A DNA stretch of 64,000 nt from a virus, in IMG/VR virus record IMGVR_UViG_3300020383_000006, positions 1 through 64,000 of that record; one strand, given 5' to 3'. A program made the position numbers and the translations under genes. Of the stretch, positions 5,871-63,449 are shown one piece after another (position 1 is the stretch's first letter; every line of letters starts with the position of its first letter). The notes beneath the pieces are model-generated. The model searched no databases. It saw only the letters and a program-made list of their open reading frames with translations, and was not told the origin of the DNA.

Positions 5871-6059
5871 ATGGTTTATATGATACCCCGACAATATAAA
5901 TGCCCAGATTGTGGAACTACTACAAAATGGGCAGATAACGGTGGAGTTGCATCAGTACCAATTATTGAAGGCGCACCCGTTTGTCCTGTTTGTTGGGAAA
6001 AATTCGTAAAAACTAACGTTCCTGTTATGCAATTGGATAATGAAAATGAGTGTTCCTAA
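5871..6059 (+). CDS. Small zinc-ribbon protein
   Basis: 62 residues, AAAGGAAAATAATT before the ATG at 5871. Two CxxC knuckles, CPDC at about residues 11-14 and CPVC at about 37-40, form a classical four-Cys zinc ribbon. Such mini proteins in phage early operons often bind host RNA polymerase or nucleic acid, but nothing here identifies the partner. Its stop lies inside the start of the next gene. Confidence 0.7.
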   Translation: MVYMIPRQYKCPDCGTTTKWADNGGVASVPIIEGAPVCPVCWEKFVKTNVPVMQLDNENECS

Positions 6060-6339: not shown

Positions 6340-6360
6340 AATAAATCATGGATAAAAAGA

Positions 6361-20458: not shown

Positions 20459-20944
20459 TTATAGTTCATGTACAATAATGGGTAACGTGGGGCAAGCTTC
20501 GTTAATAGCCCATTCAACTTCCTGTTCCCAATTTAAACCACCTATACCGCAACTAATTTTAGGTATATGCAATTCAATAGGACGTTCTTCCGTATTTACT
20601 TGGGTATATAGAAATTCAAGTCTAGAAAATACTTGGTATATAGCAGAAATTTCTGCATTCGGTCCTGGTTCAACTTGAGTGTATAAGTTGAACAAATCAA
20701 TACCATTACCCATCAAAAACGAAAAATTTCCTAATCTGCCTTTCCCTTTCGGTAAGGGGGAACGTTCATCTTTCATAGGTAATTCAGGGAACGCTTTTGC
20801 AAATTGTGCCGCAACACCAGCACCCATAACACAATGACAATTGCAACCATGGGCAAACCAAAAGTGTTTATTTTCTTCAGGGTACGATTTAACGTTTAAC
20901 GCGGATACTACGATATCGGAAGGTTTTCTATGTTCAATAATCAT
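20459..20944 (-). CDS. Macro-domain protein (ADP-ribose phosphatase/hydrolase type)
   Basis: 161 residues, one macro domain. Diagnostic elements: FAHGCNCHCVMGAGVAAQF at about 29-47 (the ADP-ribose-binding loop with GAGVA), GRLGNF at about 69-74 and ISCGIGGLNWEQ at about 129-140 (second phosphate loop). Proteins of this type act on ADP-ribose-1''-phosphate or remove ADP-ribose from macromolecules. In a phage this could reverse ADP-ribosyl toxin defences or process products of tRNA splicing, notable given the RtcB ligase at 57472. Own promoter at 20982-21010. Confidence 0.85.
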   Translation of the reverse strand: MIIEHRKPSDIVVSALNVKSYPEENKHFWFAHGCNCHCVMGAGVAAQFAKAFPELPMKDERSPLPKGKGRLGNFSFLMGNGIDLFNLYTQVEPGPNAEISAIYQVFSRLEFLYTQVNTEERPIELHIPKISCGIGGLNWEQEVEWAINEACPTLPIIVHEL

Positions 20945-34758: not shown

Positions 34759-34835
34759 TGGTGCCCCACGACTGGGTTCGAACCAGCAACCCTCCGATTA
34801 TGAGTCGGACGCTCTACCGTTGAGCTACGGGGGCA
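34759..34835 (-). tRNA. tRNA with CAU anticodon (Met or Ile2)
   Basis: 77 nt with encoded CCA. Cloverleaf visible: anticodon stem TCCGA / TCGGA around CTCATAA (anticodon complement at 34800-34802), T-arm CTGG-TTCGAAC-CCAG. The pair at the base of the acceptor stem is C-T. CAU tRNAs can be elongator Met or a lysidine-modified Ile2; sequence alone does not decide. Confidence 0.9.
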
Positions 34836-34841
34836 TTAAGT

Positions 34842-34877
34842 GGTGGTTCCCTAGTCAAGGAGATACTATGAACCACC
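34842..34877 (-). ncRNA. Hairpin beside tRNA-Met (structured RNA candidate)
   Basis: GGTGGTTC (34842-34849) pairs perfectly with GAACCACC (34870-34877). First of a series of strong inverted repeats filling the gene-free stretch 34836-35643. Confidence 0.4.
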
Positions 34878-35117
34878 TGCTAACGTTATTATCAGTTTTC
34901 CACGAGACCATGTACAGCCTATCTGATTTCCTTAATAAAAATTCTATTCAGGCAGGGATTACCACTAATTAGCTTGGACACCCTCTTTTTCTTCTCAACT
35001 ACCAAACAACAAGGAGGTAATTAAGCGAGATATAACTCTCACAAGTGACAAATTGCTTTAGAATTGAATCTAGCCACAGTTAACTCAACTCCAGAGCCGC
35101 TATATTTCAGTTTTATG

Positions 35118-35145
35118 ATGAGTGCCCTTAGCGGTAAGGACTCAT
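35118..35145 (-). ncRNA. Stable hairpin (structured RNA candidate)
   Basis: ATGAG (35118-35122) pairs with CTCAT (35141-35145) and CCTTA (35126-35130) with TAAGG (35135-35139) around GCGG. A single long hairpin with a small internal loop. Confidence 0.4.
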
Positions 35146-35159
35146 TCTTTTAGGGCGAA

Positions 35160-35230
35160 CCCATTTTACTGATTACTATGCACCTAACGTCCATGACCGC
35201 TTGCGACTTACTAATAACCAGTAAAATGGG
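35160..35230 (-). ncRNA. Structured RNA candidate with 12-bp closing stem
   Basis: CCCATTTTACTG (35160-35171) is perfectly complementary to CAGTAAAATGGG (35219-35230), enclosing 47 nt. No frame or tRNA feature explains it. Size (about 71 nt) and position between tRNAs suggest a processed stable RNA. Confidence 0.5.
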
Positions 35231-35249
35231 TGGTACACTACGCAGTACC

Positions 35250-35349
35250 CAGCGGAATATTTGGTGACAAGGCTAATTATTCGGGCGAAAAGCTCCACCA
35301 CAGAGCTTTTCTAAGCCTTGATGGCTAGTAGCTTATTAGGCTACCGCTG
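35250..35349 (-). ncRNA. Multi-helix structured RNA candidate, about 100 nt
   Basis: Nested pairing: CAGCGG (35250-35255) with CCGCTG (35344-35349) as closing stem; CAAGGCT (35268-35274) with AGCCTTG (35314-35320); AAAAGCTC (35288-35295) with GAGCTTTT (35303-35310); and a GTAGC/GCTAC hairpin near 35326-35342. The result is a branched, tRNA-sized fold without an anticodon arm or T-loop, so not a tRNA. Confidence 0.5.
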
Positions 35350-35364
35350 CCATATTAAAGTGTG

Positions 35365-35387
35365 AATCGTTTGCAGTTATAACGATT
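35365..35387 (-). ncRNA. Hairpin (structured RNA candidate)
   Basis: AATCGTT (35365-35371) pairs perfectly with AACGATT (35381-35387) around a nine-base loop. Lies between the 100-nt structure and the terminator-like hairpin. Confidence 0.35.
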
Positions 35388-35445
35388 AATTACAGTTGCA
35401 AATAAGGCGACGACTCCCTACCTGACTCGGTGCGGTTAACACCTG

Positions 35446-35471
35446 AAAACCTAAACTTGATTTAGGCTTTT
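35446..35471 (-). terminator. Terminator-like hairpin
   Basis: CCTAAA (35450-35455) with TTTAGG (35461-35466), flanked by an A-run and a T-run, usable on both strands. On the minus strand it lies just after the promoter at 35490-35518, so it would act within 30 nt of that start and may be an attenuator. Confidence 0.55.
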
Positions 35472-35489
35472 AGCTATTAACTACAATTA

Positions 35490-35518
35490 ATGATAATCAA
35501 TTATTTTTTAAAAGTAAA
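35490..35518 (-). promoter_or_regulatory. Phage promoter TTTACT-17-TATCAT inside the non-coding region
   Basis: Minus strand: TTTACT at 35518-35513, TATCAT at 35495-35490, spacer 17. Nothing but structured non-coding DNA and a tRNA lies downstream for 800 nt, supporting expression of RNAs. Confidence 0.75.
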
Positions 35519-35532
35519 CCTTTATAAGAAAT

Positions 35533-35639
35533 TTCCCTAGAGACTTGCTCGGCAAACAAGATTTTTGGGTCTGATTTTGTCATGACGAACATAAAGTTTA
35601 GCGGTTGATTAATCCACAGACAGCCTAAACTCTAGGGAA
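35533..35639 (-). ncRNA. Structured RNA candidate next to tRNA-Arg, about 107 nt
   Basis: Closing stem TTCCCTAGAG (35533-35542) with CTCTAGGGAA (35630-35639), 10 bp. Inside, CTTG (35544-35547) pairs with CAAG (35557-35560), and TTTAG (35597-35601) with CTAAA (35625-35629). It follows the tRNA-Arg gene by 4 nt on the minus strand and shares its promoter at 35742-35770, so it is probably cut from the same precursor. Confidence 0.5.
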
Positions 35640-35643
35640 TAAA

Positions 35644-35720
35644 TGGCACGGACGGTAGGACTCGAACCTACGACCAAGAGCTTAGAAGGCTCCTGCTCTA
35701 TCCAACTGAGCTACGCCCGC
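35644..35720 (-). tRNA. tRNA-Arg (UCU)
   Basis: 77 nt with encoded CCA. Acceptor GCGGGCG/CGTCCGT with two G-U pairs, anticodon loop CTTCTAA (TCT), T-arm TAGG-TTCGAGT-CCTA. Reads AGA/AGG, codons that are rare in many hosts but common in AT-rich phages. Confidence 0.93.
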
Positions 35721-41528: not shown

Positions 41529-42482
41529 TCACTTAAATTCGATTGAATTCATTAGTTCAGTACATAAAGCACTAAGGTGTAGTTCACGTGAAGGAACAAC
41601 TGCATCATACCGTTGTGCATCTTCAAGAATTAAAATCATATCAGGAATTGACTTTTTGTCAATCGTTTCTTTTAATTCTTTGTACAAGCGCTCATACATA
41701 CGTGACAAATCATTGTCTTTGTTTTGTTCACACCATTGTAAAACTGATTTAAATTTACGTTCACGCAGGTAATCAATAAGGTTACTAATTTCAACGTCAG
41801 CATATTTCATTAAAATGCCTTCGTCTATTTTACCTTGATCAGCGTATGATTGTAAAGCACCCAAAATTTTACGGTTATCAGGAAATAATTTCGTAACCAA
41901 CGTAGCGACTACTGTTTCATCGTATTCTACGCCTTCGTTATTTAAAATATCCAGAACACGCATATAAAATTTTGCTTGCATTCCATCAGATTCTTTAGGC
42001 GTTGGAGCAAAATCAACAGAAGTGAATCGTGAGTGCAACGCTGGAATGATTTTATTCGGGTAATTAGCCGTCATAATAAATGAACAAGACTTAGAATATG
42101 CTTCAGAAGCGTTACGAAGTGCCGCTTGCGTGGCTGGCATCAAATGATCAGCCTCATCAAGAATAAAGCATTTACCATTACCCGACATTGAAATAGTTGA
42201 TGCAAAAGACGCAACTTTGTCACGAATAACGTCAAGACCACGTTCTTCCGAAGCATTGACAATAACGTAATCCATTCCAATTTCATTACACATTGCACGA
42301 GCAACGGTAGTTTTACCTGTTCCTGGAGGTCCAGATAAAAGCATATTAGGAACTTTACCCGTTTTTACGATTTGGGAAAATTGTTTTTTAGTGCCGGAAT
42401 CTAGAATACAATCTTCAATTTTTTGTGGGCGATATTTTTCTACCCATAAAAATTCTTCACTATTAAATTGAATATCTGACAT
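41529..42482 (-). CDS. 44: Clamp loader AAA+ subunit (gp44)
   Basis: 317 residues from the ATG at 42482 (GGAG upstream); the longer frame to 42536 crosses a hairpin and is rejected. WVEKYRPQKIEDCIL (about 12-26), Walker A GPPGTGKTT (about 51-59), Walker B CFILDEADHL (about 107-116), sensor FIMTANY and arginine-finger region LHSRF (about 148-154) define the RFC-type loader. T4 gp44 has 319 residues. Loads the gp45 clamp at primer ends and for late transcription. Confidence 0.95.
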   Translation of the reverse strand: MSDIQFNSEEFLWVEKYRPQKIEDCILDSGTKKQFSQIVKTGKVPNMLLSGPPGTGKTTVARAMCNEIGMDYVIVNASEERGLDVIRDKVASFASTISMSGNGKCFILDEADHLMPATQAALRNASEAYSKSCSFIMTANYPNKIIPALHSRFTSVDFAPTPKESDGMQAKFYMRVLDILNNEGVEYDETVVATLVTKLFPDNRKILGALQSYADQGKIDEGILMKYADVEISNLIDYLRERKFKSVLQWCEQNKDNDLSRMYERLYKELKETIDKKSIPDMILILEDAQRYDAVVPSRELHLSALCTELMNSIEFK

Positions 42483-42509
42483 AAATGAACTCCACATGAT
42501 AAAGTAATT

Positions 42510-42534
42510 GGGGTATAAATCAAAATTATACCCC
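42510..42534 (-). terminator. Hairpin between genes 45 and 44
   Basis: GGGGTATAA (42510-42518) pairs perfectly with TTATACCCC (42526-42534) around a seven-base loop. No long U-run; probably a partial terminator or processing site that sets the ratio of clamp to loader. Confidence 0.65.
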
Positions 42535-42556
42535 ACATAAATTTAGTTTATATTGG

Positions 42557-55197: not shown

Positions 55198-55273
55198 GGT
55201 GGTAGTGGCAGAGTGGTTATGCCCTCGGTTGTGATCCGAGATCACGTGGGTTCAAATCCCATCTACCACCCCA
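55198..55273 (+). tRNA. tRNA-His (GUG)
   Basis: 76 nt including the extra G(-1), opposite C73, the histidine identity pair. Anticodon loop TTGTGAT; acceptor GTGGTAG/CTACCAC; CCA encoded. Confidence 0.95.
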
Positions 55274-55284
55274 AAGTCTTACTT

Positions 55285-55361
55285 GTACTCCCATCGTCTA
55301 GTGGTCTAGGACACTTGCCTTTCACGCAGGGAACAGGGGTTCAAATCCCCTTGGGAGTACA
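55285..55361 (+). tRNA. tRNA-Glu (UUC)
   Basis: 77 nt to the discriminator A; CCA is not encoded. Acceptor GTACTCC/GGAGTAC, anticodon stem CTTGC/GCAGG with loop CTTTCAC. Confidence 0.93.
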
Positions 55362-55375
55362 AGTAAGATTTAAAA

Positions 55376-55453
55376 GGCGGAGTGGACTGGAGTTGGTTCC
55401 AGCTCAGGCTCATAACCTGAATGACGTAGGTTCGAATCCTACCTCCGCAACCA
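55376..55453 (+). tRNA. tRNA with CAU anticodon (Met)
   Basis: 78 nt with CCA. Anticodon loop CTCATAA. The first acceptor pair is G1-A72, a mismatch normally seen only at position 1-72 of initiator tRNAs; but the G-C run of initiator anticodon stems is absent, so an elongator is more likely. Confidence 0.9.
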
Positions 55454-55459
55454 GTTTGT

Positions 55460-55534
55460 AGTGGTATAGCTCAGCGGTAGAGCAAACTCTTGATAAGGGT
55501 TAGGTCGCTGGTTCAAATCCAGCTACCACTACCA
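55460..55534 (+). tRNA. tRNA-Ile (GAU)
   Basis: 75 nt with CCA. Acceptor AGTGGTA/TACCACT, anticodon loop TTGATAA, T-arm GCTGG-TTCAAAT-CCAGC. Confidence 0.95.
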
Positions 55535-55543
55535 AATTTAAAA

Positions 55544-55629
55544 GGACGTGCGGCAAAGTTGGTGAGTTGCGGCAGACTGTAAATCTGTTACCTCAGGTTA
55601 AGAAGGTTCGAATCCTTCCACGTCCACCA
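55544..55629 (+). tRNA. tRNA-Tyr (GUA)
   Basis: 86 nt with CCA and a long variable arm, as in bacterial tRNA-Tyr. Acceptor GGACGTG/CACGTCC, anticodon loop CTGTAAA. Confidence 0.95.
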
Positions 55630-55639
55630 GTTTCGAAAG

Positions 55640-55760
55640 CGCCACACTAGCGTGATTAGACTTCATCATCTACGTGATGTATGGTGCATACCAAGATAAA
55701 GTAACCTGAAGTAGTGTTCCGGTGAAATTGAAAGGAAGATAAGGTTCAAGTCCTTAACTG
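55640..55760 (+). ncRNA. Structured segment with a tRNA-like T-arm
   Basis: Between tRNA-Tyr and tRNA-Pro. ACTTCA (55660-55665) pairs with TGAAGT (55707-55712), extended by ACACT/AGTGT; CATC/GATG and TATG/CATA hairpins lie inside. TAAGG-TTCAAGT-CCTTA (55740-55756) is a perfect T-arm, but no matching acceptor or anticodon arm can be drawn. Either a tRNA-derived stable RNA or a decayed tRNA gene. Confidence 0.45.
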
Positions 55761-55778
55761 ATGCTGAAGAATTTTAAA

Positions 55779-55857
55779 CTCCGTGTAATATCAGTCTGGT
55801 CAGATGGCTCGATTTGGAATCGAGAGGTCGTAGGTTCAAATCCTACCACGGAGACCA
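55779..55857 (+). tRNA. tRNA-Pro (UGG)
   Basis: 79 nt with CCA. Acceptor CTCCGTG/CACGGAG, anticodon stem CTCGA/TCGAG around TTTGGAA. Confidence 0.95.
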
Positions 55858-55871
55858 ATTTTGGTTATATG

Positions 55872-55918
55872 CTTATAACTAATAGTTATTATACGCAAGC
55901 CATAATTTTTAGTATAAT
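55872..55918 (+). promoter_or_regulatory. Early-type promoter, upstream-block class (copy 3)
   Basis: TAACTAATAGTTATTATAC ends at 55894 (one change from copies 1 and 2), then an 18-nt spacer and TATAAT at 55913-55918. Lies inside the tRNA array and drives the small gene at 55977. Confidence 0.7.
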
Positions 55919-55976
55919 ATTTGCGTTGGTTGGGAAGATCAACGTTAATTAACTAAAATTGAAGGAAATCTATATT

Positions 55977-56204
55977 ATGGCTATTAAACCATTATCTGAA
56001 AAACCAGTTGCTTCAAAACAAGAAATTGATTTATCTGGTCCAGATGGAAACGCTTTTGTTTTGTTTGGTTATGCTAAAAATTATGCAAAACAATTAGGTT
56101 TAGACGGTAATAAAATCGTTGAAGAAATGAAAAGCGGTGACTACGAAAATTTGTTAAATGTTTTTGATAGTTATTTCGGTGAGTTTGTAACTCTTTATCG
56201 CTAA
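55977..56204 (+). CDS. Small hypothetical protein
   Basis: 75 residues from the ATG at 55977; the translation start region AGGAAATCTATATTATGGC is almost identical to that of the gene at 332, and both lie behind the same promoter class. Helical, acidic, ending in FDSYFGEFVTLYR. Single-gene unit closed by a strong terminator. Function unknown. Confidence 0.65.
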   Translation: MAIKPLSEKPVASKQEIDLSGPDGNAFVLFGYAKNYAKQLGLDGNKIVEEMKSGDYENLLNVFDSYFGEFVTLYR

Positions 56205-56213
56205 TAGAATTTT

Positions 56214-56241
56214 GTGAGCCGAATATTCGGCTCACTTTTTT
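56214..56241 (+). terminator. Strong intrinsic terminator
   Basis: GTGAGCCGAA pairs with TTCGGCTCAC (56214-56235), followed by TTTTTT; ends the 55977 gene message 4 nt before tRNA-Asp. Confidence 0.9.
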
Positions 56242-56244
56242 ACT

Positions 56245-56324
56245 GGAGTATGGGACTGCTAGGTGTGGTCGCTGGCCTGTCACGTCAGATGTTCAGAGGG
56301 GTTCGAATCCCCTATACTCCGCCA
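56245..56324 (+). tRNA. tRNA-Asp (GUC)
   Basis: 80 nt with CCA. Acceptor GGAGTAT/ATACTCC, anticodon stem CTGGC/GTCAG around CTGTCAC, discriminator G. Confidence 0.93.
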
Positions 56325-56329
56325 TTTTT

Positions 56330-56404
56330 GGGGAATTAGCTCAGCGGTAGAGCGACTGCCTGTTAAGCAGTTGGCCATTGGTTCGAATCCAATATTCCCC
56401 GCCA
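56330..56404 (+). tRNA. tRNA-Asn (GUU)
   Basis: 75 nt with CCA. Acceptor GGGGAAT/ATTCCCC, anticodon stem ACTGC/GCAGT around CTGTTAA, discriminator G. Confidence 0.95.
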
Positions 56405-56409
56405 ATTTT

Positions 56410-56487
56410 GGGTCGGTAGCCAAGTCAGGTGAAGGCAATGCACTTTTAATGCATGGATCGAAGGTTCAAATCCTTCTCGACCCACCA
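56410..56487 (+). tRNA. tRNA-Lys (UUU)
   Basis: 78 nt with CCA. Acceptor GGGTCGG/TCGACCC, anticodon stem ATGCA/TGCAT around CTTTTAA. Confidence 0.95.
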
Positions 56488-56492
56488 ATTTT

Positions 56493-56564
56493 GGGGCTGG
56501 TTCTTGGTGACGGAAGATGGTTTGCAACCATTTGAGGAGGGTTCGATTCCCTCTAGCTCCACCA
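56493..56564 (+). tRNA. tRNA-Ala (UGC)
   Basis: 72 nt with CCA. Acceptor GGGGCTG/TAGCTCC gives the G3-U70 pair, the alanine identity element. Anticodon loop TTTGCAA. The D-arm is short and poorly paired. Confidence 0.88.
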
Positions 56565-56571
56565 AATACAG

Positions 56572-56677
56572 ATTATTTTGTACTGGCGCAATACATGAGT
56601 TCTTTCCTAGGTTTTTTAAAAAGGCTCCGGCTTCCGCTGGCTAATAGGTTGAATGCGGGGCGTCAGTACAAAATAAT
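56572..56677 (+). ncRNA. Structured RNA candidate with 17-bp closing stem
   Basis: ATTATTTTGTACTG (56572-56585) is perfectly complementary to CAGTACAAAATAAT (56664-56677); GCG/CGT extends it to 17 pairs. Inside, CCGGC-TTCC-GCTGG (56627-56640) forms a stable hairpin. Sits between tRNA-Ala and tRNA-Thr with 7 nt on either side and has no coding frame. Best candidate for a phage stable RNA of the T4 band C/D type. Confidence 0.65.
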
Positions 56678-56684
56678 TTTAATT

Positions 56685-56760
56685 GCCGACATAGCTCAAC
56701 TGGGAGAGCAGCGCCTTTGTAACGCGCATGTTGGGAGTTCGAATCTCTCTGTCGGTACCA
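56685..56760 (+). tRNA. tRNA-Thr (UGU)
   Basis: 76 nt with CCA. Acceptor GCCGACA/TGTCGGT, anticodon loop TTTGTAA with a C-C mismatch closing the anticodon stem. Confidence 0.92.
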
Positions 56761-56802
56761 ATTTATTGTTAGGTATTTAATTATGTTTGGTGGTAAGAAT
56801 AT

Positions 56803-56879
56803 AGGGGATTAGCCAAGCGGTCGAAGGCAACGGACTTTGATTCCGTTATTCAAGGGTTCGAATCCCTTATCCCCTCCCA
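56803..56879 (+). tRNA. tRNA-Gln (UUG)
   Basis: 77 nt with CCA. Acceptor AGGGGAT/ATCCCCT, anticodon stem ACGGA/TCCGT around CTTTGAT. Confidence 0.94.
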
Positions 56880-56899
56880 ATTTTGAAAGGAGATATATT

Positions 56900-57163
56900 A
56901 TGGTTCGGTTTTATCCAAGGGAACTAGAAGTTTGGAAATCTAAGTTTGATTTTTCTGGAGATACAACCTTAGTTAATAGAACACTAAAACCATATAAAGA
57001 ATTTTATGATAGAGCTGAATTGATAAAATTTTTGAGGGAGAATGGTCCCAAATTAGATAATTCTAAATACCCTTTAGAGTTTAATTCAATAAATCACCAT
57101 TACTATGGTTATTGCCATGTCGTAAAACAAATCGGTGTTCTCGGTTGGATGATTGAGAAATAG
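56900..57163 (+). CDS. Small hypothetical protein inside the tRNA array
   Basis: 87 residues from the ATG at 56900 (AAAGGAGATATATT upstream). Basic and aromatic-rich (MVRFYPRELEVWKSKFDFSG at the start, HHYYGYCHVVKQIGVLGWMI near the end). Strong start signal, no recognised domain. Cotranscribed with tRNAs, so its message would be produced by tRNA processing. Confidence 0.6.
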   Translation: MVRFYPRELEVWKSKFDFSGDTTLVNRTLKPYKEFYDRAELIKFLRENGPKLDNSKYPLEFNSINHHYYGYCHVVKQIGVLGWMIEK

Positions 57164-57181
57164 GGTAAAGTTTTAATTAAT

Positions 57182-57255
57182 GCGTGTGTAAACTCAGTTG
57201 GTAGAGTTCCGTCCTTCCAAGTCGGTGGTCGCAGGTTCGAATCCTGTCACACGCT
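57182..57255 (+). tRNA. tRNA-Gly (UCC)
   Basis: 74 nt to the discriminator U73 (a glycine identity base); CCA incomplete in the gene. Acceptor GCGTGTG/CACACGC, anticodon loop CTTCCAA. Confidence 0.92.
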
Positions 57256-57263
57256 CAATTTAA

Positions 57264-57350
57264 GGAAAGTTGGCAGAGCGGTCTATTGCACTCGACTGCT
57301 AATCGAGAGTCCTTCGGGGCACGTGGGTTCGAATCCCACACTTTCCGCCA
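57264..57350 (+). tRNA. tRNA-Ser (GCU)
   Basis: 87 nt with CCA and a long variable arm. Acceptor GGAAAGT/ACTTTCC, anticodon stem CTCGA/TCGAG around CTGCTAA, discriminator G. Confidence 0.95.
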
Positions 57351-57354
57351 ATTC

Positions 57355-57449
57355 GGAAGGTCGCAAGGCTGGCGTGCTTATCGGTCTTGAAAACCGTGAT
57401 GCTGAGTGAGTAGCTCGGCGTATGGGTTCGATCCCCATACCTTCCTCCA
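57355..57449 (+). tRNA. tRNA-Ser (UGA)
   Basis: 95 nt with CCA. Long variable arm GCTGAG/CTCGGC, anticodon loop CTTGAAA, acceptor GGAAGGT/ACCTTCC. Discriminator is U where Ser tRNAs normally have G. Confidence 0.92.
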
Positions 57450-57471
57450 ATTTTATTAGTAAGGGTTTGTT

Positions 57472-58698
57472 ATGTATAATTTGATTAAAGGTGAAAATTT
57501 TGATATTAAAGTTTGGAACAAAGATGTTCCAATGGAATCAGGTGTATTTGACCAAGTAAGAAACCTTGCTAAATTACAAGGCGTTCAGGCTGTCTCATTA
57601 ATGCCAGATGCTCATGTTGGCAAAGGGTCAACCGTAGGGTCAGTCATCGTAACTAAAAACGTTATAATTCCTGCTACAGTAGGTGTTGACATCGGTTGCG
57701 GTATGAATGCAATCCGGTTATCTTTAAAAGCTTCTGATTTACCTGAATCACTTACTCAAGTAAGGAACGAAGTAGAAAAAATGGTTCCAGTTGGTTTTGA
57801 CCAACATTCTGACCAACGTACTGGAATTAGTGCTCACAGAAATACTCGTTCAATGCTTAATCGTTATATGAGCAAATTAGAACTTGGGTTTAATGAAATT
57901 ACTAACAAACACGAAGATATTAGCAAAATGTCTAAAAACTTACCACAAAAAGTTCTTCAACAAATCGGGACTTTGGGTGGTGGTAACCATTTCATTGAAT
58001 TATGTATTGATGAAAACCAAGATGTTTGGGTAATGCTTCATTCAGGTTCTCGTGGTGTAGGTAACGCAATTGGTCGTTACTTTATTGAAAAAGCTAAAGA
58101 AGAAATTTTAAAATCAGGGTTACAAGTACCAGAAAAAGATTTATCTTATTTATCCCATGGTACAGATTTGTATCGTGATTATATTGATTCTGTTGGTTGG
58201 GCGCAAGAGTACGCTAAAACTAACCGCAAAGCAATGATGGAATTGGTTCTTACTGCTTTGAAAAGATATTTACCGAATTTCATTGTTACGAAAGAAGCGA
58301 TTAATTGTCACCACAACTATATTTCTAAAGAAGTTCATATGTCTGAAGAAGTATATGTTACCCGTAAAGGTGCAGTTTCAGCGCAAGCTGGTGAATTAGG
58401 AATTATTCCTGGTTCTATGGGTGCTAAATCGTATATCGTTCGTGGTAAAGGTAACGTTGATTCATTTTGTTCTTGTTCACATGGCGCTGGTCGTGTAATG
58501 TCAAGAAGTAAAGCTAAGAAAATGATTTCTATTGAGGATCATTTAAAAGCAACTGATGGCGTTGATTGTCGTAAAGATAAAGGTGTATTAGATGAATCAC
58601 CTTTAGCGTATAAAGATATTGACGCAGTAATGAGTTCACAAGATGACTTGGTTGAGGTAGTTCATACTCTTAAACAAGTTATGTGTGTAAAAGGTTAA
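57472..58698 (+). CDS. rtcB: RtcB-type RNA ligase
   Basis: 408 residues. All RtcB signatures are present: MPDAHVGKG (about 44-52), VGVDIGCGMN (metal Asp and Cys, about 70-79), GGGNHFIEL (about 160-168), HSGSRGVGN (about 181-189) and the guanylated His in CSCSHGAGRVMSRSKAK (about 328-344). RtcB joins 2',3'-cyclic phosphate and 5'-OH RNA ends with GTP and Mn, the break left by anticodon nucleases. Placed between tRNA-Ser and tRNA-Cys, and only 2 nt from the latter, it looks designed to repair the tRNAs around it. T4 uses Pnkp and Rnl1 for the same problem. Confidence 0.97.
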   Translation: MYNLIKGENFDIKVWNKDVPMESGVFDQVRNLAKLQGVQAVSLMPDAHVGKGSTVGSVIVTKNVIIPATVGVDIGCGMNAIRLSLKASDLPESLTQVRNEVEKMVPVGFDQHSDQRTGISAHRNTRSMLNRYMSKLELGFNEITNKHEDISKMSKNLPQKVLQQIGTLGGGNHFIELCIDENQDVWVMLHSGSRGVGNAIGRYFIEKAKEEILKSGLQVPEKDLSYLSHGTDLYRDYIDSVGWAQEYAKTNRKAMMELVLTALKRYLPNFIVTKEAINCHHNYISKEVHMSEEVYVTRKGAVSAQAGELGIIPGSMGAKSYIVRGKGNVDSFCSCSHGAGRVMSRSKAKKMISIEDHLKATDGVDCRKDKGVLDESPLAYKDIDAVMSSQDDLVEVVHTLKQVMCVKG

Positions 58699-58700
58699 TT

Positions 58701-58776
58701 GCATGGTTGGCTGAGCGTTTTAGGCGTCGGATTGCAAATCCGAATTACGGGGGTTAGAATCCCTCACCATGTTCCA
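58701..58776 (+). tRNA. tRNA-Cys (GCA)
   Basis: 76 nt with CCA. Acceptor GCATGGT/ACCATGT, U73 as required for Cys, anticodon stem TCGGA/TCCGA around TTGCAAA. The T-loop reads TTAGAAT, with A at position 56 where C is almost universal. Confidence 0.9.
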
Positions 58777-58796
58777 ACTAATTAAGGTTGTTTGTT

Positions 58797-59075
58797 ATGA
58801 GTGAATTTAAAGTTGAAGAAATGGTTTGTGGTTGTGGTCGGCAAGGTAGATATATTGACCCGTCCAATGGAAAGTCTTCTTGTAATAAAAATAAACGTTG
58901 CCCAACGTACGAGCAACTAGAAAAAACAAACAAGGAACTGTACCATGACATCCTTATGTTGTTGGAAGCTTCAAATGATGTAACAACATTCAGAGAATCT
59001 ACTAAACCTTACAACAAAGCTAATTTTGTGATTGAAGAATTAACTTCAAAATATGATTTTAATAAAAGGTTTTAA
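58797..59075 (+). CDS. Small Cys-containing protein inside the tRNA array
   Basis: 92 residues from the ATG at 58797. CGCGRQGRYIDPSNGKSSC then NKNKRCP (about 10-35) places Cys residues as in an irregular zinc finger; the C-terminal half is helical. Its stop codon ends 1 nt before tRNA-Phe. Function unknown; a nucleic-acid-binding role would fit. Confidence 0.6.
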   Translation: MSEFKVEEMVCGCGRQGRYIDPSNGKSSCNKNKRCPTYEQLEKTNKELYHDILMLLEASNDVTTFRESTKPYNKANFVIEELTSKYDFNKRF

Positions 59076-59076
59076 T

Positions 59077-59152
59077 GGGGACTTAGCTCAGCAGGTAGAG
59101 CACTAGATTGAAGATCTGGGTGTCACTGGTTCAATTCCAGTAGTCCTCACCA
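59077..59152 (+). tRNA. tRNA-Phe (GAA)
   Basis: 76 nt with CCA. Acceptor GGGGACT/AGTCCTC, anticodon stem CTAGA/TCTGG around TTGAAGA. Confidence 0.94.
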
Positions 59153-59158
59153 AATAAT

Positions 59159-59242
59159 GCGGGTATGATGGAATGGAAGACATAGGAGACTTAAAATTTC
59201 TGGGCGAAAGCCGTGTGGGTTCGAATCCCACTACCCGTACCA
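59159..59242 (+). tRNA. tRNA-Leu (UAA)
   Basis: 84 nt with CCA, medium variable arm GGGCGAAAGCC. Acceptor GCGGGTA/TACCCGT, anticodon loop CTTAAAA. Confidence 0.93.
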
Positions 59243-59258
59243 TTTAGAGGTTTATATT

Positions 59259-59462
59259 ATGATTAAACATTTTGAAAGTAAAACAAGCCATCATAATGAC
59301 TTTACTTACCCTGAAATCGGTAGTAAAGTAATTCACAAAGTTTACGGTAAAGTTCAAATTTTGTCAGTAGATAAACAAGAACTTGAAGCTACTGTTAGAC
59401 AAATTGATGGCGACCCAACGCTATTTTTTAGAATTGGGTTGGAAGATTTAGAAAGTTTTTAA
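59259..59462 (+). CDS. Small hypothetical protein inside the tRNA array
   Basis: 67 residues, AGAGGTTTATATT before the ATG. Beta-rich with GSKVIHKVYGKVQILSVDKQ, like a small SH3/KOW-type barrel, ending FFRIGLEDLESF. Ends 2 nt before the tRNA-like gene at 59464. Such barrels often bind nucleic acid; no direct evidence. Confidence 0.6.
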   Translation: MIKHFESKTSHHNDFTYPEIGSKVIHKVYGKVQILSVDKQELEATVRQIDGDPTLFFRIGLEDLESF

Positions 59463-59463
59463 T

Positions 59464-59546
59464 ACTGACGTAGTCGTGCTAAGCTACGAACTTAGTAAGC
59501 GTAAATGGATCTGAAAATGTAGGTTCGAATCCTACCGTCAGTGCCA
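59464..59546 (+). tRNA. Atypical tRNA-like gene, possibly Arg (ACG)
   Basis: 83 nt with CCA. The acceptor ACTGACG/CGTCAGT and T-arm GTAGG-TTCGAAT-CCTAC are perfect. An ideal anticodon arm CTAAG-CTACGAA-CTTAG (59479-59495) would give ACG, but only 8 nt remain before it (no D-arm) and 23 nt follow. An alternative uses GTAG/CTAC as a D-arm and leaves no anticodon stem. Either a D-armless tRNA or a non-tRNA mimic. Confidence 0.55.
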
Positions 59547-59564
59547 CATTTTAAGGTATTATTC

Positions 59565-60005
59565 ATGTTTCGTAAAATTATTGATAAAGTATTTGCTAAA
59601 TTAGGTTATGTTAGAAATAGAAAACTTAGTGCCAAATTTTCTTTAGAGTCGGAAGAAGATCTTAAAAACCTACATAATATTGGTTGTGAATCCGAATTAG
59701 TTAATGCTATTTCTGAAGAAATTAAGGGTGACCAAACAATTTTAATGAGCCGTGATAACCCTTATGGTTGGAAACTTGAAGAACTATTAGAAAAGGTAAG
59801 AAATGAACTTATCAAGAAAAATAGACTTTTGGAAGGTGATACTTGTAAAGTTTCTGACCGTATAGTTAGAAATAACGATTTCATCATTTCTAACCTAAAA
59901 GAATGTGTTATCATCCAAAAAGAAACGATGGAAGTTTTAGATACTTTAGGTGAAAACCAAGGTCCTCTGGGTAAACCAAGAGTAGGTAATAGAAATGAAA
60001 AATAA
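59565..60005 (+). CDS. Hypothetical protein
   Basis: 146 residues from the ATG at 59565. Basic N-terminus (FRKIIDKVFAKLGYVRNRKL) followed by a long helical segment (about 50-130: LEELLEKVRNELIKKNRLLE). No recognised family. Overlaps the tiny gene at 59995. Confidence 0.55.
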   Translation: MFRKIIDKVFAKLGYVRNRKLSAKFSLESEEDLKNLHNIGCESELVNAISEEIKGDQTILMSRDNPYGWKLEELLEKVRNELIKKNRLLEGDTCKVSDRIVRNNDFIISNLKECVIIQKETMEVLDTLGENQGPLGKPRVGNRNEK

Positions 60006-60114
60006 AGAACTTTCAGATAAACAAAAACGCCTTTTAAAAGAAGGTTATGAAAAATTGGGTTTAATATCCAAGTTACTTGATAAAGCATTCTTTAATGCTA
60101 TGTTGAAATCTTAA
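59995..60114 (+). CDS. Tiny basic helical protein
   Basis: 39 residues, ATG at 59995 overlapping the upstream gene, TAA at 60112-60114. Entirely helical and basic (KQKRLLKEGYEKLGLI then LDKAFFNAMLKS). The start has AGGTAATAGAA upstream. Plausible small gene; function unknown. Confidence 0.45.
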   Translation: MKNKELSDKQKRLLKEGYEKLGLISKLLDKAFFNAMLKS

Positions 60115-60132
60115 CTTTAGGATTTTTATATT

Positions 60133-60486
60133 ATGGAATTAGTGAAACAAGACTTTTTTAAAATAGATGAAAACGGTAATGAACATGAACTAACTTATTA
60201 TTTTGGTTTAAAGCAGTGGCAAAGTATTATGGATAAAAATAATATGTACCAAGTTATGCTCTTTGCTGAATATATCTATGATAATACCGTTGAACGGTTT
60301 ACAAAAAATAGGTTCATTGGTTGTGGTTTAGCGAATGAAGTTATTAAGTTAACAGGCGTTAAAATTTTTAACTATGGTTCTGTTAAGTTAGCTTTATCTA
60401 AGTTACTCCTTCAAGAAGAAGATTCTTTTGTAGGAGAAATCCATTTTCAACTTTCAGAAATAATGAAAATGAATAACAATAAATAA
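60133..60486 (+). CDS. Hypothetical protein
   Basis: 117 residues, TAGGATTTTTATATT before the ATG. Helical with aromatic clusters (LTYYFGLKQWQSIMDKNNMY), possibly a small DNA- or protein-binding helical bundle. Ends 29 nt before the leader-bearing gene 60516. Function unknown. Confidence 0.55.
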   Translation: MELVKQDFFKIDENGNEHELTYYFGLKQWQSIMDKNNMYQVMLFAEYIYDNTVERFTKNRFIGCGLANEVIKLTGVKIFNYGSVKLALSKLLLQEEDSFVGEIHFQLSEIMKMNNNK

Positions 60487-60515
60487 TTGTAACTTCACGA
60501 TATAAAGGTTAGAAA

Positions 60516-60896
60516 ATGAAAACATTTAAAGAATTTTTGGTTGAGGGTTCTACTTGGGATTCAATATCTTCAGAACTTAGAAAACATAAAGTTTTTAAAA
60601 ACGGTATGTTGAGGACACCAAGAACTGATGGGACGTATGGTGTTTTTTACTATCATAAAAAATCAGGACTTTATGGTTTGGTTATTGATGCGGATGATAA
60701 AGGCTTTTACTACACTATTTCTAGTGGCAAGTATTATTTACCATACGCTGCTGAATTAGTTTCTTCCAAAGAATTATATATATTTAAAACGAGAAACGCT
60801 CCAAAACACGCTGAAAAATACATTTTAGAAAAAATCGGTGGTGAGAACCCAACTTTGAATAGTGATACTGTGTTAGAAAATTCATTTAAAGAATAA
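60516..60896 (+). CDS. Putative capsid-targeted internal protein (leader MKTFKEFLVE)
   Basis: 126 residues with leader MKTFKEFLVE, predicted cut LVE/G. The mature part begins STWDSISSELRKHKVFKNG and continues beta-rich (TYGVFYYHKKSGLYGLVIDA, YYTISSGKYYLPY), then a helical end. No known family. The only leader gene placed among the tRNAs besides 62666. AAAGGTTAGAAA precedes the ATG. Predicted to be packaged and injected. Confidence 0.65.
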   Translation: MKTFKEFLVEGSTWDSISSELRKHKVFKNGMLRTPRTDGTYGVFYYHKKSGLYGLVIDADDKGFYYTISSGKYYLPYAAELVSSKELYIFKTRNAPKHAEKYILEKIGGENPTLNSDTVLENSFKE

Positions 60897-60906
60897 TAAT
60901 TTCTAT

Positions 60907-60991
60907 ACCTCAGTGGCGGAATTGGTAGACGCGCTAGATTTAGGTTCTAGTCCCGAAAGGGGTGGGAGTTCGATTCTCCCCTGAGGTACCA
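60907..60991 (+). tRNA. tRNA-Leu (UAG)
   Basis: 85 nt with CCA and variable arm TCCCGAAAGGGG. Acceptor ACCTCAG/CTGAGGT, anticodon stem CTAGA/TCTAG around TTTAGGT. Confidence 0.95.
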
Positions 60992-61013
60992 AATTGAATA
61001 GGCGGATAAGAAA

Positions 61014-61562
61014 ATGAGGGTTTTAAAATTAGACAAGGCAGGTACTCCAGAAAAATGGATATCTAGAGAAGATGCGGCTGTTGCGTATGCTAAAGACCAA
61101 GTCCTTTGGGAACTTGGTAATTCTGAAGCTATGTTCGGCGGTATGAATAGAAACCTTGGAATTCAAAGCCACATTGATATCGCGCCTATTATTGCATGCG
61201 ATTCACTAAGTAAATTAAGAGATAAAACAACATTTAGACTTTCTAATGCCGCTTTATTCAAAAGAGACAATTTCCAATGTATGTACTGTGGAAGGCATTT
61301 TAATAGAGGTAATTTGACTCGAGACCATATAACTCCAAGAGTACAAGGTGGTCCGGATATTTGGGAAAACGTTATTACTGCTTGTGTGCGTTGTAATACA
61401 CATAAAGGTGGTAGAACGCCTGAAGAAGCTAATATGGAATTATTAGCTATTCCTTTTGCACCGAACTTATTTGAATTTATGTACCTTAAAAGTCATAAAA
61501 TATTAGCGGATCAAATGGAATTTCTATCTAGTAAATTTAGTGGTCAGAGGGTTTGGCAGTGA
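61014..61562 (+). CDS. HNH endonuclease
   Basis: 182 residues. HNH/zinc motif: FQCMYCGRHF (about 88-97), LTRDHITPRVQGGPD (about 103-117; the DH pair is catalytic), WENVITACVRCNTHKGG (about 119-135). This is a bacterial/phage HNH nuclease with a structural four-Cys zinc site. The N-terminal 80 residues are extra. It may be a free-standing homing-type nuclease or cut host DNA. Overlaps the DUF1353-like gene (GTGA). Confidence 0.88.
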   Translation: MRVLKLDKAGTPEKWISREDAAVAYAKDQVLWELGNSEAMFGGMNRNLGIQSHIDIAPIIACDSLSKLRDKTTFRLSNAALFKRDNFQCMYCGRHFNRGNLTRDHITPRVQGGPDIWENVITACVRCNTHKGGRTPEEANMELLAIPFAPNLFEFMYLKSHKILADQMEFLSSKFSGQRVWQ

Positions 61563-61930
61563 AAAGGGTTAGTTTAGAACTTTTTATTCCAGAAAATTCT
61601 AAAGAAAAAGTTATATACAGGACAATGGAAGAAACTGAGTACCCTGAGTTGGGTATTGTGGTTCCAAAAGGGTTTTACACTGATGGAGCTTCAGTACCTA
61701 AATTATTCAGGGGAATATTTCCTGATATACACCAATATTTCCCTGCTACTTTATTGCATGATTACCTGATATTTGAGCGCAGAAAGGTCGGTAAAATGAC
61801 TTCAAAAATCAGGAAAGAAATTGATAAAAAGTTTTACAACCAACTTTTAAAAATTGGTGTTTCTAAAACCCGATCTAAAATAATGTATTTGGGTGTTAGA
61901 ATATACGCTTTTTTCAATTATAGAAAATAA
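61559..61930 (+). CDS. DUF1353-like protein
   Basis: 123 residues from the GTG at 61559 (GAGGG 8 nt upstream), overlapping the HNH stop. VVPKGFYTDGASVPKLFRGI (about 34-53) and ATLLHDYLIFERRKVGK (about 64-80) are the DUF1353 signature, a family common in phages and Rhizobiales with no known function; the His-Asp pair suggests a metal site. Only 4 nt separate its stop from tRNA-Val. Confidence 0.8.
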   Translation: MKRVSLELFIPENSKEKVIYRTMEETEYPELGIVVPKGFYTDGASVPKLFRGIFPDIHQYFPATLLHDYLIFERRKVGKMTSKIRKEIDKKFYNQLLKIGVSKTRSKIMYLGVRIYAFFNYRK

Positions 61931-61934
61931 TTTT

Positions 61935-62011
61935 AGTCCCTTAGCTCAGTTGGTTAGAGCGCAGTCCTTACAAGACTGATGTCTTCCGTTCGAATCGGAA
62001 AGGGACTACCA
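61935..62011 (+). tRNA. tRNA-Val (UAC)
   Basis: 77 nt with CCA. Acceptor AGTCCCT/AGGGACT, anticodon stem CAGTC/GACTG around CTTACAA. Confidence 0.95.
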
Positions 62012-62018
62012 ATTTGTG

Positions 62019-62112
62019 GTAAAGGCTGGTAATACCGCCAGTTCATCCACAGCAGCCGTTCTTAGGACGCTAGGAACCGCTCCACAGCGAAAAGTGGCGT
62101 AAAGACCTTTAC
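62019..62112 (+). ncRNA. Structured RNA candidate after tRNA-Val
   Basis: Closing stem GTAAAGG (62019-62025) with CCTTTAC (62106-62112), 7 bp. Inside: CTGG/CCAG near 62026-62041, GTTC/GAAC at 62058-62077, and CGC-CCAC with GTGG-CG (62078-62099, loop AGCGAAAA). A branched, roughly 94-nt fold with no reading frame. Its last bases also form the -35 of the promoter at 62108. Confidence 0.55.
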
Positions 62113-62136
62113 TTTTATTCAATAAAGTAGTAAGAT
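62108..62136 (+). promoter_or_regulatory. Phage promoter TTTACT-17-TAAGAT
   Basis: TTTACT at 62108-62113, TAAGAT at 62131-62136, spacer 17, 34 nt before the gene at 62170. Overlaps the closing stem of the RNA candidate at 62019-62112. Confidence 0.65.
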
Positions 62137-62169
62137 ACTTTTATTGTTTTTAGTAGAGGTCTTTTTGTT

Positions 62170-62673
62170 ATGAGAGTATTATTTTTGCACGGTTATGGGT
62201 CAAGTTCAGAAACTGACAAGTTTAAGGCAATCACTTCTAATAAAGTTACCCATAAGTTTTGTCCTTATATTGAGTACAACAAAACCGATTTCCTTTCTTT
62301 GTTTACGAAATTATCCCATATTGTTGAAAAATTCAGACCTGATTTAATTATTGGTCATTCTCTAGGTGGGTATTGGGCTAAAGTGATGAGCAACGCTTAT
62401 CATATTCCATGTATTCTATTGAACCCACAGTTATTTCCAAAGAAAAAGTATGGGTTTCCTAATTTGGATAAATCTGATTTTGAAACTGGGGTTTGGACTT
62501 ATAGTTACCTTGAATCAGGCGACGACATTATTGATTATGAAAAAACTAAATTAATATTAGAAAATTATACTGACTTAGAAATCTACGAAGGCGGTCACCA
62601 TAGAATTAAAAACCTAGATTCAATAAATAGTATTATTGAAAAACATTCTAGAATAGACGGGATTTATGATTAA
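62170..62673 (+). CDS. Alpha/beta hydrolase, YqiA-like esterase
   Basis: 167 residues. HGYGSSSETDKF (oxyanion region, about 6-17), nucleophile elbow GHSLGG (Ser at about 63), acidic residue in YLESGDDIIDY (about 117-127) and catalytic His in EGGHHRIKN (about 139-147). The small size and pattern match the YqiA/UPF0227 esterase family. Possible role: cutting an acyl or acetyl group from host surface material or a signal molecule; not known. Overlaps the leader-bearing gene by 8 nt. Confidence 0.8.
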   Translation: MRVLFLHGYGSSSETDKFKAITSNKVTHKFCPYIEYNKTDFLSLFTKLSHIVEKFRPDLIIGHSLGGYWAKVMSNAYHIPCILLNPQLFPKKKYGFPNLDKSDFETGVWTYSYLESGDDIIDYEKTKLILENYTDLEIYEGGHHRIKNLDSINSIIEKHSRIDGIYD

Positions 62674-63259
62674 ATTTCAAGACTTCATCAACGAAAGATT
62701 TGTTAACCTTTTTGGTGATGTAGAAGGAAAAGAAAAATACGTTGACCAAGTTTGGGATATGTTACAATCATCTTATAAACGTTCAGGCGGTATTAAAGGC
62801 TCTGGTTTCGGTTCTAAGCAAGAAATGATAGACAAGCTACCGTTATGGAAGCTAGTCCGTAAAGACGGCAAGATTGTTGCTGGTGGACTCTATAAAGACA
62901 AACGGGGTCGTAAGCGCGTAGCTTCATTTACTGATGGAACTGAACAAGGCAAAAAATGGTTAGGTAAAGTCGTAGAAGAAGATTTTGAACGTGCTTTCTT
63001 TGAAATGTCTAAAGCGGCATTTGGTTCAGCCGTTAAAAATTTGGGTATTGACTTCATGAAGCGTTGGGCTAAAACGCCACAAGAAGTAGAAAAAATTCTT
63101 AAAGGAAAGGAAATAGTTTATCCAGTACCGGAAAATGACCCGCATGTTATAAAAGTCCCAGAATTGAAGGAATTTTATTACCAACGTGAACTAGGTGGGA
63201 AATTAGAAACCAAAATTATGTTGGGTACAACTGGGAATAAAATAGTTGTAGAACAGTAA
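62666..63259 (+). CDS. Putative capsid-targeted protein, possible GNAT-like (leader MIKFQDFINE)
   Basis: 197 residues with leader MIKFQDFINE, predicted cut INE/R. The mature part reads YVDQVWDMLQSSYKRSGGIK, LWKLVRKDGKIVAGGLYKDK and VASFTDGTEQGKKWLGKVVEED, then FEMSKAAFGSAVKNLG: the layout of an N-acetyltransferase-like (GNAT) phage protein, though I cannot confirm the acetyl-CoA loop. Largest of the leader-bearing set. An injected acetyltransferase could modify host proteins before transcription starts, as T4 Alt does by ADP-ribosylation. Overlaps the esterase gene. Confidence 0.6.
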   Translation: MIKFQDFINERFVNLFGDVEGKEKYVDQVWDMLQSSYKRSGGIKGSGFGSKQEMIDKLPLWKLVRKDGKIVAGGLYKDKRGRKRVASFTDGTEQGKKWLGKVVEEDFERAFFEMSKAAFGSAVKNLGIDFMKRWAKTPQEVEKILKGKEIVYPVPENDPHVIKVPELKEFYYQRELGGKLETKIMLGTTGNKIVVEQ

Positions 63260-63262
63260 ATT

Positions 63263-63339
63263 GGAGATGTAGCTCAGTCGGTCAGAGCACGAAACTCATA
63301 ATTTCGGGGTCGGTGGTTCAATTCCACTCATCTCCACCA
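63263..63339 (+). tRNA. tRNA with CAU anticodon (Met or Ile2)
   Basis: 77 nt with CCA. Acceptor GGAGATG/CATCTCC, anticodon stem CGAAA/TTTCG around CTCATAA. Third CAU tRNA of the window; one of the three probably decodes AUA as Ile2. Confidence 0.93.
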
Positions 63340-63347
63340 ATTTAAGA

Positions 63348-63355
63348 TATAAATA
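63348..63355 (+). promoter_or_regulatory. TATAAATA late-type element
   Basis: Exact TATAAATA between two tRNA genes, 9 nt before the next tRNA. Could make the last tRNA and the gene at 63472 late, or be chance in AT-rich DNA. Confidence 0.4.
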
Positions 63356-63363
63356 TAGTTTAT

Positions 63364-63449
63364 AAGGGTGCTGATATTGGTGTGTCGAGCGGTCTCCAAA
63401 ACCGTGATCTTAACCGATCTTGGGGGTTCGAATCCCTCCACCTTTGCCA
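63364..63449 (+). tRNA. tRNA with CCA anticodon (Trp), unusual variable arm
   Basis: 86 nt with CCA. Acceptor AAGGGTG/CACCTTT, anticodon stem GCGGT/ACCGT around CTCCAAA, T-arm GGGGG-TTCGAAT-CCCTC. The variable region is 16 nt (GATC...GATC), long for a Trp tRNA, and position 8 is C where U is nearly universal. Discriminator G. Confidence 0.8.

What the first reader, a model, noticed from the sequence alone, without database searches (positions are those of the whole stretch)
57472..58776. RtcB RNA ligase embedded in the tRNA array
A complete RtcB lies between tRNA-Ser and tRNA-Cys, 2 nt from the latter, so message and tRNAs come from one precursor. RtcB seals 2',3'-cyclic phosphate and 5'-OH ends, exactly what anticodon nucleases leave. 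T4 solves this with Pnkp and Rnl1; here a one-enzyme solution is physically linked to the tRNAs. Together with the complete tRNA set this looks like a replace-and-repair module.
Basis: partly seen in the sequence, partly recalled or inferred. Interest (0 to 1): 0.75.

Follow-up and report, generated by a model that had tools for sequence, protein, structure and literature searches.

The report
RNA-repair ligase inside phage tRNA array
A T4-like bacterial virus carries the RNA-repair enzyme RtcB in the middle of its own tRNA genes, and a survey of other viruses shows this gene sits beside tRNA genes, above all the proline tRNA, far more often than chance, which supports the old but untested idea that it mends tRNAs cut by the host's defences.

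Summary
Observation confirmed. A complete 408-aa RtcB (57472-58698, +; Pfam RtcB 415 bits; 54% identical to E. coli RtcB; active-site residues kept) lies 22 nt after tRNA-Ser(UGA) and 2 nt before tRNA-Cys(GCA), inside a 23-tRNA array (55199-63449) covering all 20 amino acids. The 145.5-kb T4-like record has no detectable Rnl1, Pnkp or archease. "One precursor" is only partly right: a strong terminator-like hairpin splits the array at 56214-56235, and about ten other ORFs are interleaved, so being embedded is not by itself special.
What I add: in dereplicated phage rtcB loci, tRNAs pile up beside rtcB (roughly 10-fold, almost always same strand), beyond what other genes of the same contigs show. 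The excess is mostly tRNA-Pro(UGG) (15/43 near versus 14/309 far tRNAs). It is scattered over the RtcB tree, in otherwise unrelated gene neighbourhoods. Some bacterial chromosomes show rtcB in tRNA arrays with a slipin-like gene. T4-type Rnl1 shows no such linkage. The window is a clear case of the general linkage but not of the Pro pairing, which I found described nowhere.

The parts
57472..58698 (+). rtcB: RNA-2',3'-cyclic phosphate/3'-phosphate : RNA-5'-OH ligase, 408 aa, E. coli-type length
   Evidence: ORF; Pfam RtcB 414.9 bits over full profile; PDB RtcB homologues E 1e-29; active-site residues invariant with E. coli RtcB
57458..57465 (+). Shine-Dalgarno-like AGTAAGGG, 6 nt before the ATG of rtcB
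   Evidence: sequence
57355..57449 (+). tRNA-Ser(UGA), 22 nt upstream of rtcB
   Evidence: ARAGORN
57264..57350 (+). tRNA-Ser(GCU)
   Evidence: ARAGORN and Rfam
58701..58776 (+). tRNA-Cys(GCA), 2 nt downstream of the rtcB stop codon
   Evidence: ARAGORN and Rfam
55199..63449 (+). tRNA array: 22 ARAGORN tRNAs plus one further Rfam tRNA, all 20 amino acids, interleaved with about ten ORFs besides rtcB
59464..59543 (+). tRNA missed by ARAGORN; anticodon loop CTACGAA read by eye as Arg(ACG)
   Evidence: Rfam tRNA 37.8 bits; sequence; fold
56214..56235 (+). strong intrinsic-terminator-like hairpin (9 pairs, 6 GC, then T6) that divides the array into 55199-56204 and 56245-63449; rtcB lies in the second part
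   Evidence: sequence
55779..55857 (+). tRNA-Pro(UGG) of this phage, with A at position 37; in the first half of the array, not next to rtcB
61014..61562 (+). HNH endonuclease gene interleaved in the array (shows that non-repair genes are embedded too)
   Evidence: Pfam HNH 4e-15

Best explanation
The gene makes an active E. coli-type RtcB ligase that is transcribed together with the phage tRNAs around it. During infection the phage both adds its own tRNAs (replacement) and reseals tRNAs, its own and probably the host's, that metal-independent host ribonucleases have cut, leaving 2',3'-cyclic phosphate and 5'-OH ends (repair). RtcB does this as one GTP- and Mn-dependent enzyme, with no need for the Pnkp + Rnl1 pair of T4. 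Shown: gene intact with its catalytic residues; position; no Rnl1, Pnkp or archease detected in the record; recurrent, same-strand, isotype-biased linkage of rtcB and tRNAs in unrelated phages. Inferred: enzymatic activity, co-transcription, tRNA as the substrate, and the defence setting.
For: Intact RtcB with all active-site residues. Only 22 and 2 nt to the flanking tRNAs on the same strand, with no + strand terminator-like site between 56245 and 58776 except two weak ones inside the rtcB frame. No Rnl1 (positive control T4), no archease, no Pnkp (the only AAA_33 hit is in the clamp-loader ATPase ORF; tblastn of T4 PseT and RnlA gives nothing significant). Linkage: tRNA density about 1/kb within 100 nt of phage rtcB against about 0.1/kb at 2-10 kb; 36 of 37 tRNAs within 100 nt on the same strand; 10 of 31 clusters observed against 1.4 expected from other ORFs of the same loci. 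Other phages embed rtcB between tRNAs on both sides, e.g. L271, 29 tRNAs, 1 nt from tRNA-Pro. T4-type Rnl1 loci: 0 of 33 next to a tRNA; in T4 itself pseT and rnlA lie about 61-66 kb from the tRNA cluster. Salmonella rtcBA is switched on by anticodon-loop tRNA halves ending in cyclic phosphate (PMC7790460). In Anabaena a spare 26-tRNA operon and rtcB share one repressor (PMC10272220).
Against: The closest relatives do not keep the arrangement: pf16, the nearest named relative by portal protein, has rtcB about 14 kb from its 8 tRNAs, and the closest rtcB kin (L002-L010) have no tRNA nearby. So embedding is not essential to function. Most phage rtcB loci have no adjacent tRNA. About ten other ORFs, including an HNH gene, are interleaved in the same array. 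RtcB also mends 16S rRNA and tmRNA in bacteria (work cited in PMC10272220 and PMC11090510), so tRNA need not be the target.
Confidence: 0.6

Rival explanations
1. Accessory-gene hotspot: tRNA genes, rtcB, an HNH gene and small ORFs collect in the same tolerant region. The closeness is hitch-hiking with no functional coupling.
For: About ten unrelated ORFs are interleaved in the same array; relatives have rtcB elsewhere; the array is 5.7% of the record.
Against: Across phages rtcB is next to tRNAs far more often than other ORFs of the same contigs (10 vs 1.4 expected, 0 of 20000 simulations; 31 vs 5.5), nearly always same strand, and with a strong isotype bias. Hitch-hiking does not predict one isotype.
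Confidence: 0.2
2. RtcB serves other RNA: it reseals 16S rRNA, tmRNA or mRNA cut by MazF-type toxins; tRNA linkage only gives it strong co-expression.
For: RtcB repairs MazF-cut 16S rRNA in E. coli (cited in PMC10272220) and tmRNA is reported as its commonest bacterial target (cited in PMC11090510).
Against: Does not explain linkage to tRNA genes or to tRNA-Pro.
Confidence: 0.1
3. tRNA punctuation: the flanking tRNAs act as RNase P/Z/E processing signals that cut rtcB mRNA out of a long transcript and stabilise its ends; the ligase itself has nothing to do with those tRNAs.
For: 2-nt and 22-nt spacing, same strand, many other ORFs also separated by tRNAs.
Against: Any isotype would serve, yet Pro(UGG) dominates next to rtcB in other phages; does not explain why rtcB in particular is enriched.
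Confidence: 0.07

Closest known systems
Phage-encoded RtcB proposed as counter to host tRNA cleavage (Cluster K1 mycobacteriophages, Pope 2011, PMC3203893; jumbo phages, Iyer 2021, PMC7824862)
   Same: Same enzyme family, same proposed role together with phage tRNAs
   Different: In Adephagia there is no tRNA within 3 kb of rtcB, and the paper puts the single tRNA-Trp at the other (left) end of the genome; here rtcB is inside a 23-tRNA array
Sphingobium phage Lacusarx tRNA region (PMC5648845)
   Same: 24-tRNA array, rtcB in the same region and strand
   Different: rtcB is 8.4 kb from the nearest tRNA, beside tadA
Proteus phage Privateer (PMC7881722)
   Same: rtcB about 1 kb downstream of three tRNAs
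   Different: Small tRNA set; not embedded
Pseudomonas phage pf16 (Chakrabartyvirus), nearest named relative of this phage
   Same: T4-like, RtcB 58% identical, 8 tRNAs
   Different: rtcB (12.1-13.3 kb) and tRNAs (27.1-30.0 kb) are 14 kb apart
T4 Pnkp (PseT) + Rnl1 (RnlA) tRNA-Lys repair against PrrC
   Same: Purpose: resealing of anticodon-loop cuts
   Different: Two other enzymes with different chemistry, more than 60 kb from the T4 tRNA cluster; neither found here
Anabaena trn operon and rtcB under TrcR (PMC10272220)
   Same: Spare tRNA array and rtcB switched on together
   Different: Cellular; the two loci are co-regulated but on different replicons

Membership tests
RtcB RNA ligase (Pfam PF01139) | Full-length match to the family profile | tested here: met
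   414.9 bits (cut-off 27), profile 1-426 of 426
RtcB RNA ligase (Pfam PF01139) | Metal-binding and guanylylated residues (D, C, N/H, H, H and nucleophilic H337 in E. coli numbering) | tested here: met
   D73, C76, N172, H173, H190, H281, H337 invariant with E. coli RtcB
RtcB RNA ligase (Pfam PF01139) | Ligation of 2',3'-cyclic phosphate or 3'-phosphate to 5'-OH RNA ends | not testable with these tools
   needs enzyme assay
Bacterial rtcBA operon | rtcA next to rtcB and an RtcR regulator | tested here: not met
   neighbours are tRNAs and short ORFs; the E. coli operon has rtcA 3 nt away and rtcR divergent
Archease-dependent RtcB | Archease partner encoded | tested here: not met
   no PF01951 match in the 145.5-kb record; record may be incomplete
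T4-type tRNA repair (Pnkp + Rnl1) | Rnl1 and Pnkp encoded | tested here: not met
   no PF09511 match in the record (T4 control rings); no Pnkp; record may be incomplete
Phage tRNA-repair counter-defence | Loss of rtcB makes the phage sensitive to an anticodon-nuclease defence | not testable with these tools
   needs genetics

The most novel reading that the evidence does not exclude
rtcB and tRNA genes form a recurrently assembled repair-and-replace module in phages, and in some bacterial chromosomes with a slipin-like gene. Its preferred tRNA is Pro(UGG), often with A37 in place of the G37 of E. coli. This points to a widespread, undescribed host attack on tRNA-Pro(UGG) that leaves ends RtcB can seal. 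The window is the all-isotype version of this module.
Probability: 0.25. Interest if true: 0.8.

Novelty: new variant of a known kind. Interest (0 to 1): 0.55.

Why it matters
Phage RtcB has been said to mend tRNAs cut by host defences since 2011 with little more than co-occurrence as evidence. The linkage shown here (close, same-strand, repeated in unrelated neighbourhoods, biased to one isotype) is independent evidence that phage RtcB acts on tRNA, and the bias to tRNA-Pro(UGG) names a substrate that can be tested directly. If right, it predicts a class of host nucleases aimed at tRNA-Pro(UGG), and shows how a T4-like phage can do without T4's kinase-ligase pair.

Tried and rejected
(1) Control gene nrdA of this phage for the tRNA-distance test: only one relative found, so I used other ORFs of the same loci as controls. 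(2) AAA_33 hit as a Pnkp: it lies in the clamp-loader ATPase ORF at 41529-42536, rejected. (3) Named phages with RtcB (D6, FLC9, BcepSaruman, Gurke, Kabachok, XM05, L02, Cp1R7A-A1): no tRNA within 2.5 kb, so the linkage is not universal. (4) One inherited rtcB-tRNA-Pro cassette: rejected, since the pairing needs 13 changes on the RtcB tree (8 forced by well-supported branches), the tRNA is upstream in some and downstream in others with divergent sequences, and other neighbours mostly share no homologues. (5) Literature for RtcB with tRNA-Pro or tRNA arrays: nothing on the pairing; AriB cuts tRNA-Pro(UGG) only as a possible minor target (PMC12409363). (6) Prophage attachment site in tRNA-Pro: not tested directly; the same-strand preference and the tRNA's position on either side of rtcB argue against it. 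(8) The scans used queries already known to be Pro-adjacent, so the isotype test was repeated without them.

Full report
What is there. The ORF at 57472-58698 (+) encodes a 408-aa RtcB. It matches Pfam RtcB over the whole profile at 415 bits, solved RtcB structures at E 1e-29, and is 54% identical to E. coli RtcB with all catalytic residues conserved. tRNA-Ser(UGA) ends 22 nt upstream and tRNA-Cys(GCA) begins 2 nt downstream, same strand. The surrounding array runs from 55199 to 63449: 22 ARAGORN tRNAs plus a further Rfam tRNA at 59464-59543 that I read as Arg(ACG), together covering all 20 amino acids. About ten other protein ORFs are interleaved, e.g. an HNH nuclease; the Pfam scan of the surrounding ORFs also shows DUF1353 and UPF0227 families. 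The finding's end coordinate, 58776, is the end of tRNA-Cys.

The phage. The window is the first 64 kb of a 145,504-bp IMG/VR virus record. Pfam scans show a distant T4-like phage (gp20, gp23, gp32, UvsX, UvsY, RegA-type translational regulator, clamp loader, T4-type terminase). By portal protein the nearest named phage is Pseudomonas phage pf16 (50% identity).

Other RNA-repair genes. No Rnl1 (PF09511; the same search finds T4's at 90.6 bits), no archease, and no Pnkp: the one weak AAA_33 hit lies in the clamp-loader ATPase ORF, and tblastn with T4 PseT and RnlA gives nothing significant. The record may be incomplete, so absence is provisional.

One precursor? A strong terminator-like hairpin at 56214-56235 separates the first six tRNAs and a small ORF from the rest. 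From 56245 through tRNA-Cys no comparable + strand site is seen, and the 2-nt and 22-nt gaps leave no room for promoters between tRNA-Ser, rtcB and tRNA-Cys. Co-transcription of rtcB with its neighbours is therefore likely; a single transcript for the whole array is not shown. These are consensus scans only.

Is the linkage more than chance? One gene in an array covering 5.7% of a genome proves little, so I collected phage rtcB loci from IMG/VR. In the first 229 loci (68 RtcB clusters at 70% identity), tRNA density is 1.04/kb within 100 nt of rtcB against 0.05-0.15/kb at 2-10 kb; of 31 clusters with any tRNA, 10 have one within 250 nt against 1.4 expected if rtcB behaved like other ORFs of 200 aa or more in the same loci (0 of 20,000 simulations). 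In 352 loci (206 clusters at 95%) it is 31 against 5.5, and 36 of 37 tRNAs within 100 nt are on the same strand. rtcB is flanked by tRNAs on both sides within 250 nt in L271, L315, L287 and L288; L271 has 29 tRNAs with rtcB 26 nt from Asp and 1 nt from Pro. T4-type Rnl1 shows no such pattern: 2 of 33 loci have any tRNA within 10 kb and none is adjacent, though these 33 are mostly relatives of T4.

An unexpected isotype bias. In the set not chosen with proline in mind (167 clusters at 95%), tRNA-Pro(UGG) is 15 of 43 tRNAs within 250 nt of rtcB but 14 of 309 beyond 1 kb (Fisher p 4e-8; odds ratio 11; tRNAs are not fully independent, so read this as an effect size). In loci with a single tRNA, 5 of 6 adjacent ones are Pro(UGG) against 2 of 24 distant ones. 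The pairing is scattered on the RtcB tree (at least 13 changes, 8 forced by well-supported branches), the tRNA lies upstream in some and downstream in others with diverse sequences, and the neighbouring ORFs mostly have no homologues among the other loci. Pooled ORFs from ten such contigs include phage terminases, portals and DNA polymerases. The adjacent tRNA-Pro has A37 in 17 of 21 cases against 8 of 18 distant ones (p 0.02); E. coli proM and T4 tRNA-Pro have G37. A37 is also common in other phage tRNAs that have G37 in cells, such as Leu(UAG), so this part is weak. In the window the phage's own tRNA-Pro(UGG) (55779-55857, A37) is in the array but not next to rtcB.

Relatives of the window. 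The eight-member RtcB clade holding the window has no other tRNA-adjacent member, and pf16 has rtcB 14 kb from its tRNAs. The arrangement here therefore arose on its own, which fits a repeated tendency rather than an inherited cassette.

Cellular parallels. Of 80 bacterial rtcB loci, 7 have a tRNA within 250 nt against 12 of 519 other ORFs. In L120 (Pseudomonadales MAG) rtcB is embedded in a tRNA array followed by a Band_7/SPFH gene; L112 (Lysobacterales MAG) has the same elements, both with metabolic genes around them. In Anabaena a spare tRNA operon, rtcB and a slipin-family gene are under one repressor (PMC10272220).

Mechanism. Most likely RtcB reseals tRNAs cut by metal-independent host nucleases while the phage tRNAs replace losses. 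Activity, co-transcription and substrate are inferred. It cannot help against nucleases that leave 5'-phosphate and 3'-OH ends. The hypothesis was published for cluster K1 mycobacteriophages in 2011 (PMC3203893) and for jumbo phages in 2021 (PMC7824862); rtcB near tRNAs was noted in Lacusarx (PMC5648845; 8.4 kb apart) and Privateer (PMC7881722). I found no report of rtcB inside a phage tRNA array or of the tRNA-Pro pairing in the open-access library; subscription papers were not searched.

Verdict.

Noticed in passing
L026, L061, L263, L265, L271, L283, L307, L321, L332 and others, next to rtcB: tRNA-Pro(UGG) lies within 250 nt of rtcB in many unrelated phage contigs, sometimes as the only tRNA; mostly with A37.
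   Followed up: partly
L120 (rtcB near 6001-7173), L112, L100: Bacterial MAG contigs with rtcB in or beside tRNA arrays; in L120 and L112 a Band_7/SPFH (slipin-like) gene follows close by.
   Followed up: partly
L082:2898-5113 (record 66898-69113): TET/JBP oxygenase and TET-associated glycosyltransferase genes side by side: this phage probably hypermodifies its DNA.
   Followed up: no
window 20459-20944 (-); L082:6163-6627: A macro-domain protein and a cytidylyltransferase-like (possibly NMN adenylyltransferase) protein: possible NAD/ADP-ribose counter-defence genes.
   Followed up: no
window 55630-55775: Between tRNA-Tyr and tRNA-Pro a stretch with a T-arm-like motif (AAGGTTCAAGTCCTT) that no tool calls a tRNA; perhaps a degenerate or interrupted tRNA.
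   Followed up: no
window 56214-56235: Strong terminator-like hairpin in the middle of the tRNA array, 9 nt before tRNA-Asp; read-through or an internal promoter is needed for the downstream tRNAs.
   Followed up: no
window 34763-35720 (-): Two further tRNAs (Met CAT, Arg TCT) far from the array on the opposite strand.
   Followed up: no
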